A DNA stretch of 11,296 nucleotides from contig NMQN01000790.1 of assembly GCA_003575245.1 (NCBI GenBank), forward strand, positions 1-11,296, given 5' to 3'. Positions 3 to 11,296 of the stretch are shown here, piece by piece. Below the pieces are notes generated by a model, which had not been told where the DNA came from, ran no database searches, and worked only from the letters and a program-made list of their open reading frames with translations. The stretch's first letter is position 1, and every line of letters starts with the position of its first letter. The stretch comes from Candidatus Atribacteria bacterium 1244-E10-H5-B2 (GTDB lineage Bacteria; Atribacterota; JS1; SB-45; 34-128). The translations under genes and the position numbers were made by a program.

Positions 3-122
3 TCTCATGAAGAAACAGGAAGAATTAAAATGATTGATGCTAATAGGAACAAAGAAGATATACATAATGAGATAATTAAAATTGTTAAAAGAAAATTAAC
101 CGTATCTCGTAAATTGAAGTAG
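3..122 (+). CDS. tmk: Thymidylate kinase, C-terminal fragment (5' end outside window)
   Basis: An open frame enters from the left edge and stops at TAG 120-122, giving 39 residues. It contains GRIKMIDANR followed by an amphipathic helix ending IVKRKL. This resembles the end of bacterial thymidylate kinases, where an R-I-x-x-IDA segment precedes the final helix. The enzyme phosphorylates dTMP to dTDP in the cytoplasm; its P-loop and catalytic parts are not in the window. The next gene is holB, the common bacterial tmk-holB order, which supports the call. The last residues (TVSRKLK) are encoded by bases 100-122, which belong to the repeat array filling the following spacer, so the C-terminus seems to have been extended or replaced by repeat DNA. 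The call rests on a short fragment plus synteny. Confidence 0.62.
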   Translation, partial: SHEETGRIKMIDANRNKEDIHNEIIKIVKRKLTVSRKLK

Positions 123-455
123 AATTCAGGAGCCAGAATCCAGAATCCAGAATAAAATCGTATTGTGTATATCACGTATTGAGTATCGTATAGAATAAAA
201 TAACAAAAATAAAAAAGTTCGCTGACGCCAGGAAAAAGAATACAGTATTCGGAGTTATCTTAAATTATAAGACTATATTTTTTATTAAATTATTTTATAT
301 TCTTCTGACTTCTGTCTACTGGCTCCTGAATTCTAAAATAATGATTATGATTTTTCGCTTTTAGCTTTAAATTTTTAGCTTAAGTAGAGTAGGGTGCAAT
401 TTATCGAATCCATAAAAAATCAAAAATAGAAATACAGGAGCAATCAAAATAAGTT
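123..455. repeat. Spacer tmk-holB: heptad-phased repeats with inverted arms
   Basis: No gene is seen here. From 100 to 155 the sequence runs in 7-bp units (AGAATTC at 121, AGGAGCC at 128, AGAATCC at 135 and 142). GTAT-centred units follow at about 158-192. The right half holds the same words inverted: 300-334 reads as AGAA/AGGAGCC heptads on the minus strand. Bases 121-136 and 319-334 are perfect 16-bp reverse complements. A T-rich heptad block at 352-379 (TTTTAGC at 359 and 373) matches one at 2593-2620. Bases 388-410 look like a decayed half of the palindrome at 7644-7713. The only expression signal identified is the AGGAG before holB; I saw no clear promoter or terminator. Confidence 0.8.
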
Positions 456-2302: not shown

Positions 2303-2667
2303 TTTGCTATATTGTATCGCGTAAAAAGATAGAAGTTAGTATTCAGAAACCAGGAGCCAGAATATTCCATAACGAATAGAGAATAGCGTATAGTGTATTT
2401 CGCGAAAAACGAAAAGTGCAAAGCGCAAAACCATAGCTCAAAACTTAAAATTAAAGTATAGTATTTAGTATATAGTAAAGAAAGAAGAAAAAGAACTTAA
2501 GATTAAGAAAACAAAATCACAAAAATTTTGCGAACACCATGTATTCTAGTATCATCAAACAATACGGAAAAATTTTGAATTTTGAATTATGGTTTTTAGT
2601 TTTTCGTTTTAAATTTTTAGCTTTATATAATGTAGCAGACAAACAATATAGTGAATAATATAAAAAT
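2303..2667. repeat. Spacer ricT-trmN: long heptad-phased mosaic array and inverted partner
   Basis: No gene is seen. From just after the stop codon to 2479 the DNA reads in continuous 7-bp phase while the word changes: GTA-type units near 2310-2323, AGAA-type units at 2331-2365 (AGGAGCC at 2352), ATAG units at 2369-2396, CGAAAAG at 2410, CGCAAAA at 2424, then TAGTATT and TAGTATA at 2459-2472. A second block at 2572-2627 runs in heptads (ATTTTGA twice, then TTTTTAG and TTTTTCG units) and is the approximate reverse complement of 2403-2451. The whole spacer could therefore fold into a long imperfect hairpin. No convincing terminator with a U-run was found. Confidence 0.82.
2626..2631 (+). promoter_or_regulatory. 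Possible -10 box for the trmN-rsmI-metG block
   Basis: A perfect TATAAT lies 37 nt before the trmN start, at the right edge of a heptad block. No good -35 box is seen at 16-18 nt upstream; that stretch is T-rich (around TTCGTT). In DNA this AT-rich a chance match is quite possible. Confidence 0.3.
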
Positions 2668-3378
2668 ATGATTACACTAAATAATAATGAAAAAATCGAA
2701 GATTTAGGAGATAAAAGACTTAAAATTATCCAAGCAAACGATTCATATCGTTTTTCGATGGATTCTATTTTACTGCTTAATTTTATTAGACTTAAAAACT
2801 ATGAAAAAATTATTGACTTGGGTACTGGCTCTGGAATAATTCCTCTGCTTTTATTTGGTAAAAGAAAAGGATTATCTATCTATGGAGTTGAGATACAAAA
2901 AGATTTAGCAGATATGGCCAGAAGAAGTGTAGAATTAAATAAATTACAAAATGGTATAAATATAATTCAAGAGGATTTCAGAAACCTAAAAAATATTTTT
3001 AAAAACCAGCAATTCGATGTAGTAGTAAGTAATCCTCCTTATATTTCTCTGGTGCAGGGGAAGCTTAATCCTTTGAGCAGTAGAGCTATTGCCAGGCACG
3101 AAATAAAAGGTGATTTAGAAGACGTAATTTCCGTAAGTAATTATTTGCTAAAAAATAAAGGAAGAATTTATTTAATCTATAGAAGTACTAAATTAATGAA
3201 ATTAATACTTACCTTACAAAAATATGGTATTGAACCAAAGGTTATTAAATTTATTCATCCCCGGCCAGGAGAAAATGCGAATCTCGTATTGTTTGAAGGA
3301 ATAAAAAGTGGGAAAGAAGAATTAAAGATCGAAGACCCCATATTCCTTAATTTTAACGAAAAAAATGGAGACAAATAG
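2668..3378 (+). CDS. tRNA1(Val) adenine-37 N6-methyltransferase-like (YabB/TrmN6 family)
   Basis: This is a 236-residue class I SAM-dependent methyltransferase. Motif I is IIDLGTGSGIIPLLL (48-62), an acidic residue in VEIQ (E75) suits ribose binding, and the catalytic NPPY is at 122-125, the signature of N-methylation of adenine or glutamine amide. The lead-in QANDSYRFSMDSILL matches the F-x-x-D-S/A-x-L-L pattern of YabB/TrmN6 proteins, which modify A37 of tRNA-Val. Its place before rsmI, as yabB stands in Firmicutes, supports this; the exact substrate remains inference. ATG 2668 is the first start after an in-frame TAA at 2656-2658, but no clear ribosome site precedes it. The yazA-like GIY-YIG gene often found between yabB and rsmI is missing. 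The charged tail after about residue 212 is not part of the fold. Confidence 0.85.
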   Translation: MITLNNNEKIEDLGDKRLKIIQANDSYRFSMDSILLLNFIRLKNYEKIIDLGTGSGIIPLLLFGKRKGLSIYGVEIQKDLADMARRSVELNKLQNGINIIQEDFRNLKNIFKNQQFDVVVSNPPYISLVQGKLNPLSSRAIARHEIKGDLEDVISVSNYLLKNKGRIYLIYRSTKLMKLILTLQKYGIEPKVIKFIHPRPGENANLVLFEGIKSGKEELKIEDPIFLNFNEKNGDK

Positions 3379-7093: not shown

Positions 7094-7276
7094 ATTAGCC
7101 GTTAGTGTACTAGTCGTTGGTGAATAGTCGTTAGTCGTTAGTTTTAAATACAAGATGCAAGTTTTCAGTTATCAATTTATAGTTTTAAGATAAAGAGATA
7201 AAAAAAATCGGCTTCTGGATTCTATTTTCTTTACGAGATACGATTCACGAGATACGAGATACGAATTGATTTGCTT
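7094..7276. repeat. Spacer after lytic transglycosylase: heptad arrays
   Basis: No gene is seen. A continuous heptad phase starts at the stop codon. TCGTTAG-type units occupy 7100-7141 (exact AGTCGTT at 7112, 7126 and 7133), and ATACAAG, ATGCAAG and related words run to about 7196. A second block at 7210-7230 (GGCTTCT, GGATTCT, ATTTTCT) is the inverted form of the AGAA/AGGAGCC family. It passes into ACGAGAT units at 7233-7267, the inverted form of the CGTATCT words at 100-111 and 11123-11136. Bases 7233-7263 match 8601-8631 at 30 of 31 positions. The array ends just before the promoter of the riboswitch transcript. Confidence 0.8.
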
Positions 7277-7306: not shown

Positions 7307-7333
7307 CACTAAAAATAAAATATCGAAGATTAA

Positions 7334-7532
7334 ACTTTTTCGGGGCAGGGTGAGGTTAAACTAAAAGATAACCAATTCCCGACCGGTGGTAAATTCTTTC
7401 TGTTGTTTTATATCAATGATTGAATAAGCCCACAAGCTTAGCACTAACATATATTGATAATAATTTATTGGGTGCTTGGCAGATCTGGTGAAAAACCAGA
7501 GCCGACAGTAAAGTCTGGAAGGGAGAAGAAGT
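7334..7532 (+). ncRNA. FMN riboswitch (RFN element)
   Basis: The conserved blocks of the RFN aptamer appear in order: CGGGGCAGGGTGA (7341-7353), TTCCCGACCGGTGGTAAA (7376-7393), AAGCCCACAAGC (7426-7437), the P5 hairpin TCTGGT/ACCAGA (7484-7489 with 7495-7500), and GCCGACAGTAAAGTCTGG (7501-7518). P1 pairs 7334-7341 with 7525-7532 (eight pairs, one G-U). It is longer than minimal RFN elements. P2 carries an extra GGTTA/TAACC stem (7354-7358 with 7369-7373), the P3 region has about 32 added AT-rich bases, and P4 has a long AT-rich extension closed by GCAC/GTGC (7441-7444 with 7472-7475). FMN binding should stabilise P1 and turn off the downstream gene, which encodes a riboflavin transporter; that direction of control is inferred from family behaviour. 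Confidence 0.95.
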
Positions 7533-7547
7533 GAATTGTATTGAATA

Positions 7548-7643: not shown

Positions 7644-7713
7644 CGTAGGGGTTCGATTTATCAAACCCGAAGGTAATTTCCAATTCACGGGTCGGATGAA
7701 TCCGACCCCTACG
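7644..7713. repeat. Palindromic intergenic element with CGTAGGGGT/ACCCCTACG ends
   Basis: This 70-bp unit is bounded by 9-bp inverted ends (7644-7652 and 7705-7713) and contains two sub-hairpins. The left stem is 7649-7656 with 7661-7668 (one mismatch) and the right stem is 7689-7696 with 7701-7708 (perfect). The layout resembles small non-autonomous palindromic repeats with GTAGGGG ends seen in many genomes. It has no coding capacity. It lies between the riboswitch terminator and ribU, so it would be present in the ribU leader RNA. A partial copy is visible at about 388-410. Confidence 0.7.
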
Positions 7714-7739
7714 TTACAAGCGATACTTAATACGAAAAA

Positions 7740-7781
7740 AGTTTTGAGTTTTGAGCTAATGACTATTCAATATTGACTAAT
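7740..7781. repeat. Short heptad array upstream of ribU
   Basis: Six 7-bp units in phase: AGTTTTG at 7740 and 7747, then AGCTAAT, GACTATT, CAATATT and GACTAAT. The AGTTTTG words are the inverted form of TCAAAAC at 2438. The array ends about 20 bp before the ribU ribosome site. Nothing else is recognised in 7714-7800. Confidence 0.65.
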
Positions 7782-7814: not shown

Positions 7815-8345
7815 ATGAAAAGTATAAAAATTACCAGTATTTCTATATTAGTAGCCTTGTCCATAGTAGCAGGGTATTTTATTCATTTTCCCATTTTACC
7901 CCAAGCACCATTTTTATTATATGATCCGGGGAGTGTATTTCTCCTGATTGGATCTTTTAAATTAGGTCCGAAAATTGGCGTTCTAATGACTTTAATTACA
8001 GCAGTACTTTTTGCGCTTATTACCGGACAGGGCGGTCCCTATGGCGCTTTGATGAATTTTTTAGCAACGGGAACTTTCGTATTTGTATCATCCCAAATCT
8101 ATTTCTTACATCATGACAAGAAGGGAGCAATTATAGGATTAATCTTGGGGACATTATCAATGACCTTAATAATGGTTCCAGCTAACTTAATAATCACTCC
8201 CCTCTACTTAGGGGTTGAAAGGGAAATCGTAGTTAAAATGCTAATTCCAGCTATTATTCCCTTTAATCTTTTAAAAGGGATTATTAGTGGTGTCTTAACT
8301 TTCATTTTATATAAAAGGCTGTACCCTTTAATAATTAGCAAATAA
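7815..8345 (+). CDS. ribU: ECF transporter S component, probable riboflavin transporter RibU
   Basis: The product is a very hydrophobic 176-residue protein with about six membrane segments (approximately 6-24, 37-51, 53-71, 76-98, 104-128 and 144-168). This is the normal size and topology of the substrate-binding S subunit of energy-coupling-factor transporters. LLYDPGSVFLL near 34-44 and PFNLLKG at 149-155 recall RibU proteins, where a hydrophobic-YDP segment follows helix 1. The upstream FMN riboswitch makes riboflavin the most likely substrate. RibU needs a shared EcfT membrane partner and EcfA ATPases to work; none is encoded here. AGGAG (7803-7807) lies 7 nt before ATG 7815. The gene is monocistronic as far as can be seen, with repeats following its stop and no terminator identified. 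Confidence 0.9.
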   Translation: MKSIKITSISILVALSIVAGYFIHFPILPQAPFLLYDPGSVFLLIGSFKLGPKIGVLMTLITAVLFALITGQGGPYGALMNFLATGTFVFVSSQIYFLHHDKKGAIIGLILGTLSMTLIMVPANLIITPLYLGVEREIVVKMLIPAIIPFNLLKGIISGVLTFILYKRLYPLIISK

Positions 8346-8741
8346 ACCTAAATTAATTATTTTTGATAAATTGTAGAAATGAATATATAATAAGTTAAAT
8401 CAAAAACTTAAAGCGAAAAGCGCAAAACCATATTGGTTAGTTAGTTACTTAGTTACTTGGTTAGCTGGTTTAATACTAATTCATTTATTGACTAACTAAT
8501 TTTATATGATGTATGCTATTTAAAATTCTTGCTCCTGGTTTCCTTCTTATATTTTCTTAACTATCTAACCGGGTAACTAGCTAACCAACTAACTAAATAT
8601 ACGAGATACAATTCACGAGATACGAGATACGGTTTCATTCTGACTTATAGATCTGGCTTCTTTTCTTAACGTAATACGATTTTGTTCTGGTTTCGGTATT
8701 TTCTTTACTTTACTATATACTAAATACTATATACTGTTTAA
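8346..8741. repeat. Spacer ribU-manC: heptad words plus TTAG-tetrad inverted repeat
   Basis: No gene is seen. After about 50 ordinary AT-rich bases, a heptad block at 8400-8434 repeats the word order found at 2410-2437 (CGAAAAG, CGCAAAA, CCATA). Then 8433-8472 is built from TTAG/TTAC/TTGG tetranucleotides, and 8558-8599 is its approximate reverse complement. Inverted AGGAGCC-type words lie between the two arms (about 8528-8547). ACGAGAT heptads follow at 8601-8631 and TACTATA/TACTAAA heptads at 8711-8738, the latter inverted relative to TAGTATA at 2466 and 11065. The manC promoter must lie here, perhaps within the TACTATA units, but no box pair is convincing. Confidence 0.78.
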
Positions 8742-9870: not shown

Positions 9871-11067
9871 TTGAAGAACAAATATTTATTTACTTCCGAA
9901 TCAGTTACTGAGGGACATCCGGATAAGATTGCTGATCAAATATCTGATGCTATTTTGGATGCCATCTATAAAGAAGATCCCTACGGAAGAGTAGCAGTAG
10001 AAACTTTAGTAGCTACCGGATTAGTTATGGTAGCCGGGCAGATTACTACTTCTTGCTATGTTGATATTCCTAAAATAGTACGTCAAACCATTCGAGATAT
10101 AGGTTACACCAGGGCTAAATATGGATTTGATGGTGATACTTGTGCGGTATTAACCTCTATTGATGAACAATCCAAGGATATAGATCGGGGGGTGAGTAAA
10201 TCTTGGGAAGTAAAAGAAGCAGAAAAAGAAAAAAATGACATAGAAACTACCGGGGCAGGTGATCAAGGAATGATGTTCGGATATGCTTGCAGAGAAACTC
10301 CCGAACTGATGCCCCTTCCTATAATATTGGCTCATAAATTAACTTATCGCCTGGCAGAAGCAAGAAAAAAGAAGATAATTCCTTATCTCAGACCTGATGG
10401 GAAATCTCAGGTTACAGTTGAATATGAGAATGGGGACCCAAAAAGAGTAGAGGCGGTAGTAATTGCTGCTCAACATCATCCCGATATTCTTTATGAAATT
10501 ATTCAAAAAGATATCAAAGAAAAAGTTATTAATCATGTTATACCCCAAAAATATCTTGATGAAAATACTAAATATTTTATTAATGCTACCGGAAGATTTG
10601 CCATTGGCGGCCCCCAAGCAGATACCGGGGTTACCGGTAGAAAAATAATTGTTGATGCCTATGGAGGAGTAGGAAGTCATGGAGGTGGATGTTTCTCCGG
10701 GAAAGACCCCACTAAAGTGGACAGGTCAGGTAGTTATATGGCAAGGTATATAGCTAAAAACATTGTAGCTGCCGGATTGGCTGACAAATGTGAGATACAA
10801 ATTGCCTATGCAATTGGGGTAGCTCATCCCATATCTATTATGTTAGATTTTTTTGGAACAGAAAAAATTCCTCAACCGAAAATATTGGAATTAATTAAAA
10901 AGAATTTTGATTTACGTCCGGAAGCAATAATAAGACACTTGAAGCTTAGAAGACCAATATATAAGAAGACTGCTTCCTACGGTCATTTTGGAAGGGAAGA
11001 TGAAGATTTTACCTGGGAAAAGACTGATAAAGCGGAGATACTAAAAGAACAAGCAGGACTAAAATAG
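9871..11067 (+). CDS. metK: S-adenosylmethionine synthetase
   Basis: MetK makes SAM from methionine and ATP in the cytoplasm. The 398-residue form has family length and strong signatures: [13 protein letters not shown] (7-19), [12 protein letters not shown] (128-139), [16 protein letters not shown] (271-286; Cys where Ala is more usual) and the C-terminal YGHFGRED. I choose TTG 9871 as the start because AAGGAG (9856-9861) lies 9 nt before it. The in-frame ATG 9862 directly abuts that site with no spacing and would add only three residues. No SAM riboswitch or other leader precedes it, since the gap from manC is 25 nt, so it depends on upstream transcription. Its TAG stop (11065-11067) is also the first three bases of a heptad repeat array. 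Confidence 0.97.
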
Positions 11068-11296
11068 TATATAGTATATCGTATGTCGTATATCGTGAAG
11101 AAAGAAAGAGCCAGGAGCCTAATTCGTATCTCGTATAAAATACAGTAACAAGTAATATGTAATGAGTAATAAGATTAAATTTCCCAAATTATAAAAACAA
11201 GCACTTATTACAATTTACAGATTACATCGCTTATTGGTTAGTTAGTTTCCTGGTTAGCTGGTTAAGAAAATTGAGAAGATAGATGCCAGGAGCCAG
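11065..11296. repeat. Downstream spacer: heptad array, inverted heptad arm and TTAG repeat
   Basis: Starting at the metK stop codon, 7-bp phase holds without slippage to 11176, sixteen units. TAGTATA occurs at 11065 and 11072, TCGTATG and TCGTATA at 11079-11092, AGAGCCA and GGAGCCT at 11107-11120, ATCTCGT at 11128, and AGTAA-type units at 11142-11176. ATTAC-type heptads (ACAATTT, ACAGATT) at 11203-11230 are the inverted counterpart of the last group, and 11207-11209 continues them. Bases 11233-11264 repeat the TTAG tetrad element of 8432-8470 with a short internal deletion. The window ends in another AGGAGCCAG word. No gene, terminator or promoter is identified. Confidence 0.8.

What the first reader, a model, noticed from the sequence alone, without database searches (positions are those of the whole stretch)
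2303..2479. Intergenic DNA tiled by 7-bp units that keep phase while the word changes
Direct reading shows an unbroken 7-bp register from the ricT stop to 2479, about 25 units. The consensus changes stepwise through GTA-type, AGAA/AGGAGCC, ATAG-xGT, CGAAAAG, CGCAAAA, TCAAAAC and TAGTATA units. A simple tandem repeat that decayed should show one word with scattered mutations and slips; here distinct words share one phase. The same happens in five other spacers. Seven is not a multiple of three, so coding is not the cause; three units span 21 bp, close to two helical turns. Cyanobacterial heptanucleotide STRR repeats are the nearest analogue I know, but those repeat a single word. Possible explanations are a templated or slippage-based expansion process, a phased protein-binding array, or a mosaic repeat family spread by recombination.
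Basis: partly seen in the sequence, partly recalled or inferred. Interest (0 to 1): 0.8.

Follow-up and report, generated by a model that had tools for sequence, protein, structure and literature searches.

The report
Worn ends of small mobile elements
The seven-letter rhythm between these genes is most likely made of the worn ends of small mobile elements that carry, or once carried, a gene for a four-helix protein, which would give a common origin to puzzling seven-letter repeats seen in several groups of bacteria.

Summary
The lag-7 signal is real: 0.57 base identity at 2303-2479 (z +8.5), absent from nine coding stretches, strong in four other spacers and weak in a fifth. The window is Atribacterota-like. 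The ricT|methyltransferase junction is empty in three relatives; rsmI|metG, empty here, is filled in six. Complete fillers carry a PF05635/TIGR02436 gene ("23S rRNA intervening sequence protein", IVP) between heptamer arrays that are mostly reverse complements of each other, in Atribacterota, cyanobacterial plasmids and viral contigs. Eighteen of 21 window segments match such arms better than all 40 of their shuffles. Different words share one grammar, NNNNN(A/C)G read inward from either end, so words change while phase stays. Anchor runs peak at five; both solved relatives have five chains per entry. Best explanation: the spacer is a pile of gene-less or decayed ends of IVP elements, and IVP reads the heptamers. 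Element origin is well supported; recognition and movement are inferred. No paper found in the held open-licence library makes the link, though one reports heptamers before the S23p gene of a 23S rRNA IVS.

The parts
2303..2667 (.). insert between ricT and the methyltransferase gene, made of heptamer blocks
   Evidence: junction empty in L001, L003, L004; filled in window, L002, L005
2299..2304 (+). ATGATT at the ricT end, possible target duplication (left copy)
   Evidence: read; target duplication not proven
2668..2673 (+). ATGATT at the methyltransferase start, possible target duplication (right copy)
   Evidence: read; target duplication not proven
2326..2360 (+). array of five NNNNNAG units (AAGATAG AAGTTAG TATTCAG AAACCAG GAGCCAG)
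   Evidence: part of it matches an arm of L126
2368..2403 (+). array of AATAGCG/TATAGTG-type units
2402..2455 (+). 5' arm of a gene-less element
   Evidence: best match to the 5' arm of the IVP element in L002, score 42 against a shuffle maximum of 21; near-identical in the same spacer of L002
2455..2479 (+). TAGTATT/TAGTATA units inside that element
   Evidence: matches the arm of L008; absent from the same spacer of L002
2571..2628 (-). 3' arm, inverted relative to 2402-2455
120..158 (+). 5' arm of a second gene-less element, five anchors at 116-150
   Evidence: 39 nt, 82% complementary to 297-335; best match is an arm of L126 from a Nostoc plasmid
297..335 (-). 3' arm of that element, five anchors on the minus strand at 305-339
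7094..7145 (+). TAGTCGT-type array, no partner found in the spacer
   Evidence: matches the arm of L061; no partner
7229..7268 (-). TATCTCG-type array, five anchors
   Evidence: matches the arm of an IVP element in L003
8402..8432 (+). fragment of an arm of the 2402-2455 type
   Evidence: L002
8433..8470 (+). 5' arm with 4/8-bp units (TTAGTTAG type)
   Evidence: 38 nt, 79% complementary to 8559-8596
8559..8596 (-). 3' arm with 4/8-bp units
   Evidence: this segment did not beat its shuffles
8597..8633 (-). TATCTCG-type array
   Evidence: L003
8701..8740 (-). TATATAG-type array before the next gene, four anchors
   Evidence: (L016)
11061..11095 (+). TATATCG/TATGTCG array starting at the metK stop codon, five anchors
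   Evidence: (L062)
11139..11173 (+). TAATGAG-type array; 11152-11173 pairs with 11204-11225
   Evidence: (L012)

Best explanation
The heptamer-tiled spacer is an accumulation of ends (arms) and gene-less copies of a family of small mobile elements. A complete element is a few hundred base pairs: a 5' arm of typically four to six heptamers NNNNN(A/C)G, one gene for a four-helix-bundle protein (IVP, PF05635/TIGR02436), and a 3' arm that is the reverse complement of the 5' arm. Lineages of elements use different words but keep the (A/C)G anchor every 7 bp, so piled-up arms look like changing words in one rhythm. Shown: periodicity, inverted arms around IVP genes, shared grammar, filled and empty junctions, gene-less copies. 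Inferred: the pentameric IVP reads the anchors, about one heptamer per subunit, at both ends, more likely in DNA than as an RNA stem; copies insert between genes, often at stop or start codons, then lose the gene or an arm and gain or lose units by slippage. How strands are cut and joined is unknown.
For: Filled and empty orthologous junctions in Atribacterota and in named Nostoc plasmids, with one gene-less copy with GGGAAC-type arms. Arms around IVP genes are reverse complements: Atribacterota median score 21 in 38 loci against 10 in 191 control genes, 25 of 38 above the controls' 95th percentile; plasmids 23.5 in 24 loci against 9 in 311 controls, 15 of 24 above; viral contigs 25 of 30 above the 95th percentile of mismatched pairs. 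Lag-7 arrays flank at least one side of 11 of 12 IVP genes and both sides of 5; both sides of 8 of 249 other genes. Eighteen of 21 window segments match such arms above all 40 shuffles, 0 of 4 coding controls do. Shared grammar in 40 words, score 3.16 against shuffles 2.78 (sd 0.04, largest 2.87), repeated in 23 words from viral contigs, 2.99 against 2.80 (largest 2.92). Words stay similar at 60-80% protein identity while fourfold sites are near background at 60-70%. Anchors peak at five and both solved relatives have five chains per entry.
Against: The window itself holds no IVP gene and 103 of 159 arrays in the sample are solo with no IVP gene nearby. G006 has arrays at its locus but no PF05635 match. 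Thirteen of 38, 9 of 24 and 5 of 30 IVP loci show no clear inverted arms, and in L086 and L094 the two flanking arrays read in the same direction. 48 of 124 arms and 15 of 60 had no clean array and were left out of the grammar fits. Target duplications are short and not consistent. No cutting enzyme is known in the element. Five anchors is a mode, not a rule. Word and protein similarity are unrelated below 50% identity and between groups. The shuffles lack period 7, so part of that excess is periodicity alone.
Confidence: 0.7

Rival explanations
1. RNA-level intervening sequence: the arms exist to form an RNA stem that RNase III cuts out of the operon transcript, as in 23S rRNA, so the insert is tolerated; the heptamers are only a slippable stem.
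For: The window insert folds better than shuffles (z -2.9, 0 of 100 as good). IVP genes run with both neighbours in 47 of 56 cases against 371 of 540 controls (p 0.02 pooled, not significant in either group alone). The 23S rRNA IVS is cut by RNase III and has a terminal stem (PMC4990558 passages).
Against: Mismatches between arms show no G-U preference (74 wobble against 89 not, p 0.27; 75 against 88). Both arms keep the same anchors.
Confidence: 0.15
2. Simple slippage-made tandem repeats (as usually proposed for heptamer repeats) that expand in spacers, with no mobile element.
For: Unit numbers differ between orthologous arms and reach 15 and 19; PMC4679880 cites a proposal that polymerase contact length favours 7-nt units (passage); 103 of 159 arrays are solo.
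Against: Inverted pairs around one gene family, filled and empty sites, left-AG and right-CT polarity of arrays in co-directional spacers (73 to 33, and 28 to 8), and a shared grammar.
Confidence: 0.08
3. IVP genes insert into older heptamer arrays, which serve as targets, so arms are not part of the element.
For: Arrays are common in spacers of the sample whether or not IVP is near.
Against: An insert into one array would leave flanks reading in the same direction; they mostly read in opposite directions. Empty sites in Nostoc plasmids lack the arrays.
Confidence: 0.05
4. Assembly artefact.
For: The Atribacterota loci are MAG contigs and no whole genome is held for the window.
Against: The same architecture in plasmid records described as complete.
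Confidence: 0.01

Closest known systems
Intervening sequences (IVS) of bacterial 23S rRNA with an S23p/IVP gene
   Same: Same protein family; complementary ends; one described IVS has tandem GACAGAT units just before the S23p gene, two or three by strain (PMC4990558 passage), which read as ATGACAG fits NNNNNAG
   Different: Here the elements lie between protein genes, not in rRNA; both arms are heptamer arrays; most copies in the window have no gene; no RNase III evidence
Cyanobacterial short tandemly repeated repetitive (STRR) heptanucleotides and other intergenic heptamers such as TAACTGA of Beggiatoaceae
   Same: Seven-bp units in spacers; cyanobacterial plasmids have the same arrays at the ends of IVP elements; TAACTGA repeats are described from spacers (PMC4679880 passages)
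   Different: Described as one repeated word and without link to an element or to S23 ('S23' occurs 0 times in PMC4679880); STRR itself is recalled, not read
Miniature inverted-repeat elements (MITEs)
   Same: Inverted ends without a gene, with fuller relatives that carry one
   Different: Ends are iterated heptamers; no transposase is known; target duplication unsettled
Avd accessory protein of diversity-generating retroelements
   Same: Related four-helix fold: PMC10053308 notes the resemblance of PF05635 to Avd (passage); weak matches here
   Different: Below the curated cut-offs; reverse transcriptase found in only 2 of 7 genomes
TRAP RNA-binding ring (recalled)
   Same: A ring protein that reads evenly spaced AG-containing units is the model for the proposed reading of anchors
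   Different: TRAP is an 11-membered ring with shorter spacing (recalled); IVP is a helical pentamer and its binding is untested

Membership tests
23S rRNA intervening sequence (IVS) elements | carries an S23p/IVP gene | tested here: not met
   no IVP in the window (hmmsearch lists none for it); met by the elements in L002, L003 and others
23S rRNA intervening sequence (IVS) elements | lies in an rRNA gene | tested here: not met
   between protein genes; Rfam finds no rRNA in the window nor in 18 IVP loci scanned of the 97 or more held
23S rRNA intervening sequence (IVS) elements | complementary ends | tested here: met
23S rRNA intervening sequence (IVS) elements | excised from RNA by RNase III | not testable with these tools
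MITE-like derivative of IVP elements | inverted ends, no gene | tested here: met
   120-158/297-335, 2402-2455/2571-2628, 8433-8470/8559-8596
MITE-like derivative of IVP elements | ends match a gene-carrying relative | tested here: met
   2402-2455 against L002, score 42
MITE-like derivative of IVP elements | constant target-site duplication | tested here: inconclusive
   CTA or TTCTA, ATG, and none clear, at three Nostoc junctions; ATGATT twice in the window
STRR heptanucleotide repeats | 7-bp direct repeats in spacers | tested here: met
   several words with a shared anchor
Diversity-generating retroelement Avd | Avd-level score to the Avd model | tested here: not met
   DivGenRetAVD 25-33 bits in 4 of 5 proteins against a cut-off of 80; bAvd 33-34 bits in 2 of 5 against 40
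Diversity-generating retroelement Avd | reverse transcriptase partner | tested here: inconclusive
   RVT_1 in 2 of 7 genomes; MAGs may be incomplete

The most novel reading that the evidence does not exclude
A widespread class of mobile elements, of which rRNA IVS are one branch, has ends made of about five NNNNN(A/C)G heptamers, each read by one subunit of a pentameric four-helix-bundle ring that is the element's own mobility protein; heptanucleotide repeats of cyanobacteria and other bacteria are its fossils. The residues invariant in 14 aligned proteins (Q42 R45 S49 N53 I54 E56 S76 E79) would hold a new nucleic-acid binding or active site.
Probability: 0.35. Interest if true: 0.93.

Novelty: new variant of a known kind. 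Interest (0 to 1): 0.82.

Why it matters
Intergenic heptamer repeats have long been noted without an agreed origin (recalled), and the function and movement of IVS and their S23 protein are described as unclear in PMC4990558 (passages). The link ties the two together, gives a one-line grammar that can be searched in any genome, and predicts what the pentameric protein binds. It also explains much of the spacer turnover seen between these Atribacterota relatives.

Tried and rejected
RNA-stem selection: no wobble preference. Reverse transcriptase in trans: RVT_1 in 2 of 7 genomes. Strict count of five: among 143 arms with at least three anchors, 59 have five, 36 four, 17 six, 17 three, 14 more than six; weighted by protein cluster about 12 of 31; 41 of 184 arms had fewer than three and were left out. 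Word-protein co-divergence: Mantel r 0.46 over all pairs, weak below 60% identity (67 of 2000 permutations reach it), none below 50% or between groups. Element orientation: pooled p 0.02, not significant in either group. Anchor phase in other spacers: 41, 21 and 163 of 1000 shuffles reach the observed value in A, C and F, so F is not significant. Lower mismatch at anchors (0.10 and 0.11 against 0.13-0.21) is partly built in, because phase is set by anchors in one arm. Indels in multiples of 7 between orthologous spacers: four alignments showed mostly replacement, so unit gain and loss was seen only between close Nostoc copies. Rfam in the window: only an FMN riboswitch, nothing in the heptamer DNA. 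tblastn of a Nostoc IVP against phage records: no match. In one search, 10 of 21 loci rank first for their own partner; the rest rank 2 to 5, mostly behind loci with like words. In one search the own-pair score is 25 or more in 8 of 16 loci, 15-17 in 3 and 12 or less in 5; in L092 the called gene runs into the arm.

Rows dropped: one search used 21 of 24 loci (3 with N); one search kept 38 of 61 Atribacterota hits (14 duplicates, 6 at edges or open, 3 with N) and 24 of 41 plasmid hits (17 duplicates), as counted; one search used 30 of 35 loci (5 identical genes dropped; some of the 30 are still near-identical); searches left out L003. Papers: passages only of PMC4679880, PMC4990558, PMC4476775, PMC8700078, PMC11270868, PMC10053308 and PMC10910872; all others only as search listings. 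Absence from print rests in an open-licence library; listings were capped, and subscription papers may hold the link.

Full report
Observation. The 7-bp periodicity at 2303-2479 is real: lag-7 identity 0.57, z +8.5 against dinucleotide shuffles, with echoes at lags 14 and 21. Four other spacers show it strongly and one weakly; none of nine coding stretches does. In 382 kb of the window and Atribacterota-like relatives, noncoding DNA has the lag-7 excess and coding DNA does not; lag-7 arrays far outnumber arrays of the other periods from 4 to 12, with lag 8 second. The window's own genome is not held. A ricT scan found seven loci at 73-90% identity, L001-L007; six record titles name Atribacter(ot)a and one says only 'bacterium'.

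The spacer is an insert. ricT and the methyltransferase gene abut or overlap in L001, L003 and L004 and are nearly adjacent in L007. The window, L002 and L005 have roughly 250-365 bp there, and L006 holds another, palindromic repeat. Conversely rsmI|metG is empty in the window and holds inserts in L001-L006, with different heptamer words. The window insert lies between two copies of ATGATT (2299-2304 and 2668-2673). L002 shares the arms 2402-2455 and 2571-2667 almost exactly, but not the DNA to the left of or between them.

Complete elements. [quoted passage not shown] PF05635 occurs in 6 of 7 of these genomes, in 22 of 50 genomes of the phylum, and in 0 of 14 control genomes. In Atribacterota most of these genes sit between two heptamer arrays that are reverse complements, and elements differ in their word. 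The arm-pair score has median 21 in 38 loci against 10 in 191 control genes, with 25 of 38 above the controls' 95th percentile and 15 above the 99th. In cyanobacterial and Azospirillum plasmids it is 23.5 in 24 loci against 9 in 311 controls, with 15 of 24 above the 95th percentile. Thirty distinct loci from viral contigs give 25 of 30 above the 95th percentile of mismatched pairs. Of the 40 plasmid records listed among 44 matched, 34 are cyanobacterial by name. In some the gene lies between genes of one operon: cas10 and a Cmr3-family gene, cas6 and cas4. Exceptions are real: in L086 and L094 both flanking arrays read in the same direction.

Presence and absence in named plasmids. At hyp441|hyp288, L083, L101 and L102 are empty and L092, L099 and L100 are filled, with CTA or TTCTA at both ends (one copy reads TTCTG). 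At hyp288|hyp1542, L083 is filled and L092, L100, L101 and L102 are empty, with ATG at both ends. At TraM|hyp417, L080 and L081 carry the full element, L097 has GGGAAC-type arms without the gene, and L096 and L098 have other sequence there, with no clear duplication. Elements come and go, and gene-less copies exist; the length of the target duplication is not settled.

The window's blocks are arms. Eighteen of 21 tested window segments match an arm of an extant IVP element better than all 40 of their shuffles; 0 of 4 coding controls do. Segments 7738-7757, 8555-8597 and 11233-11268 fail. The shuffles lack period 7, so part of the excess is periodicity itself, but the matches are word-specific, up to score 42 for 2402-2455. 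Inverted pairs lie at 120-158/297-335, 8433-8470/8559-8596 and 11152-11173/11204-11225, and 2402-2455 folds against 2571-2628. Many arrays are solo: of 159 in the sample, 26 lie beside an IVP gene, 19 more have an inverted partner, 103 are solo and 11 lie at edges. Arrays at the left edge of co-directional spacers tend to read AG and at the right edge CT (73 to 33 in Atribacterota, 28 to 8 in plasmids, ties left out), as expected of leftover 5' and 3' arms.

Why words change but phase stays. A circular fit over 40 distinct words (from 76 of 124 arms that had a clean array) gives a shared pattern: position 7 is G in 92%, position 6 is A in 72% or C in 17%; the score is 3.16 against 2.78 (sd 0.04, largest 2.87) for column-shuffled words. 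Twenty-three words from viral contigs (45 of 60 arms) repeat it: G 85%, score 2.99 against a largest shuffle of 2.92. In the window 2326-2360 reads AAGATAG AAGTTAG TATTCAG AAACCAG GAGCCAG. The constant is the anchor, not the word.

Mechanism. Arm mismatches are fewest at the two anchor positions (partly built in) and show no G-U preference, which points to each arm being read by a protein rather than kept as an RNA stem. Words stay similar (0.69 and 0.82 on a scale where unrelated pairs give about 0.41) when proteins are 60-70% and 70-80% identical, although fourfold sites are near background at 60-70%; this suggests constraint, though homogenisation within arms could add to it. Runs of anchors peak at five (59 of 143 arms; about 12 of 31 cluster-weighted); the window has five such places with exactly five (116-150, 305-339, 2326-2360, 7229-7268, 11061-11095). 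The two solved relatives have five chains per entry, and PMC4990558 says that the Xanthomonas protein is a homopentamer toroid (passage). One heptamer per subunit is a natural but untested proposal. Fourteen aligned proteins keep Q42 R45 S49 N53 I54 E56 S76 E79. What cuts and joins DNA is unknown; reverse transcriptases were found in only 2 of 7 genomes.

Known relatives. One 23S rRNA IVS has tandem GACAGAT units just before its S23p gene, with a number that varies by strain (PMC4990558 passage); read as ATGACAG this fits the grammar. PMC4679880 describes intergenic TAACTGA repeats and has no mention of S23. PMC10053308 notes that PF05635 resembles Avd (passage). PMC11270868 reports IVP genes in rRNA insertions of CPR bacteria and calls the domain functionally uncharacterised (passage). 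Nine searches of the held library showed no paper that links intergenic heptamers to IVP genes (listings capped).

Verdict. The spacer is most likely a pile of ends and gene-less copies of IVP-type mobile elements (about 0.8). Reading of NNNNN(A/C)G by a pentamer is the most likely mechanism but unproven (about 0.4). The figure of 0.7 in the best explanation weighs the two.

Noticed in passing
window 7332-7534: FMN riboswitch (RF00050, 89.9 bits, gathering score 66.2) upstream of a small membrane protein gene at 7815-8345 that looks like a riboflavin transporter subunit (name recalled).
   Followed up: no
window 7644-7713; L003:18000, L006:10753, L044:10488, L051:5208, L055:1382: A second dispersed repeat: a palindrome of the type GTAGGGGTCGGATTnATCCGACC. 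The window copy is an imperfect inverted repeat (81%); exact core matches lie in 5 of 183 loci (L003 and L044 overlap), and one copy sits in the ricT|methyltransferase junction of L006.
   Followed up: partly
window 8433-8596 and 11233-11268; L026: A sister type with 4/8-bp units (TTAGTTAG) instead of 7; lag 8 is the second most common array period (28 arrays in 72 kb noncoding) and L026 has such arms around an IVP gene.
   Followed up: partly
L085, L086, L091: In cyanobacterial plasmids IVP genes sit inside CRISPR gene clusters: between cas6 and cas4 (two cases) and between cas10 and a Cmr3-family gene.
   Followed up: no
L099:684-1265: In a Nostoc plasmid the IVP gene is in two pieces with further heptamer arms between them, as if a second element had landed in the first.
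   Followed up: no
L105 (L086), L106 (L085): Very long runs of 15 and 19 anchored units in one arm with 3 and 6 in the other: local expansion, probably by slippage.
   Followed up: no
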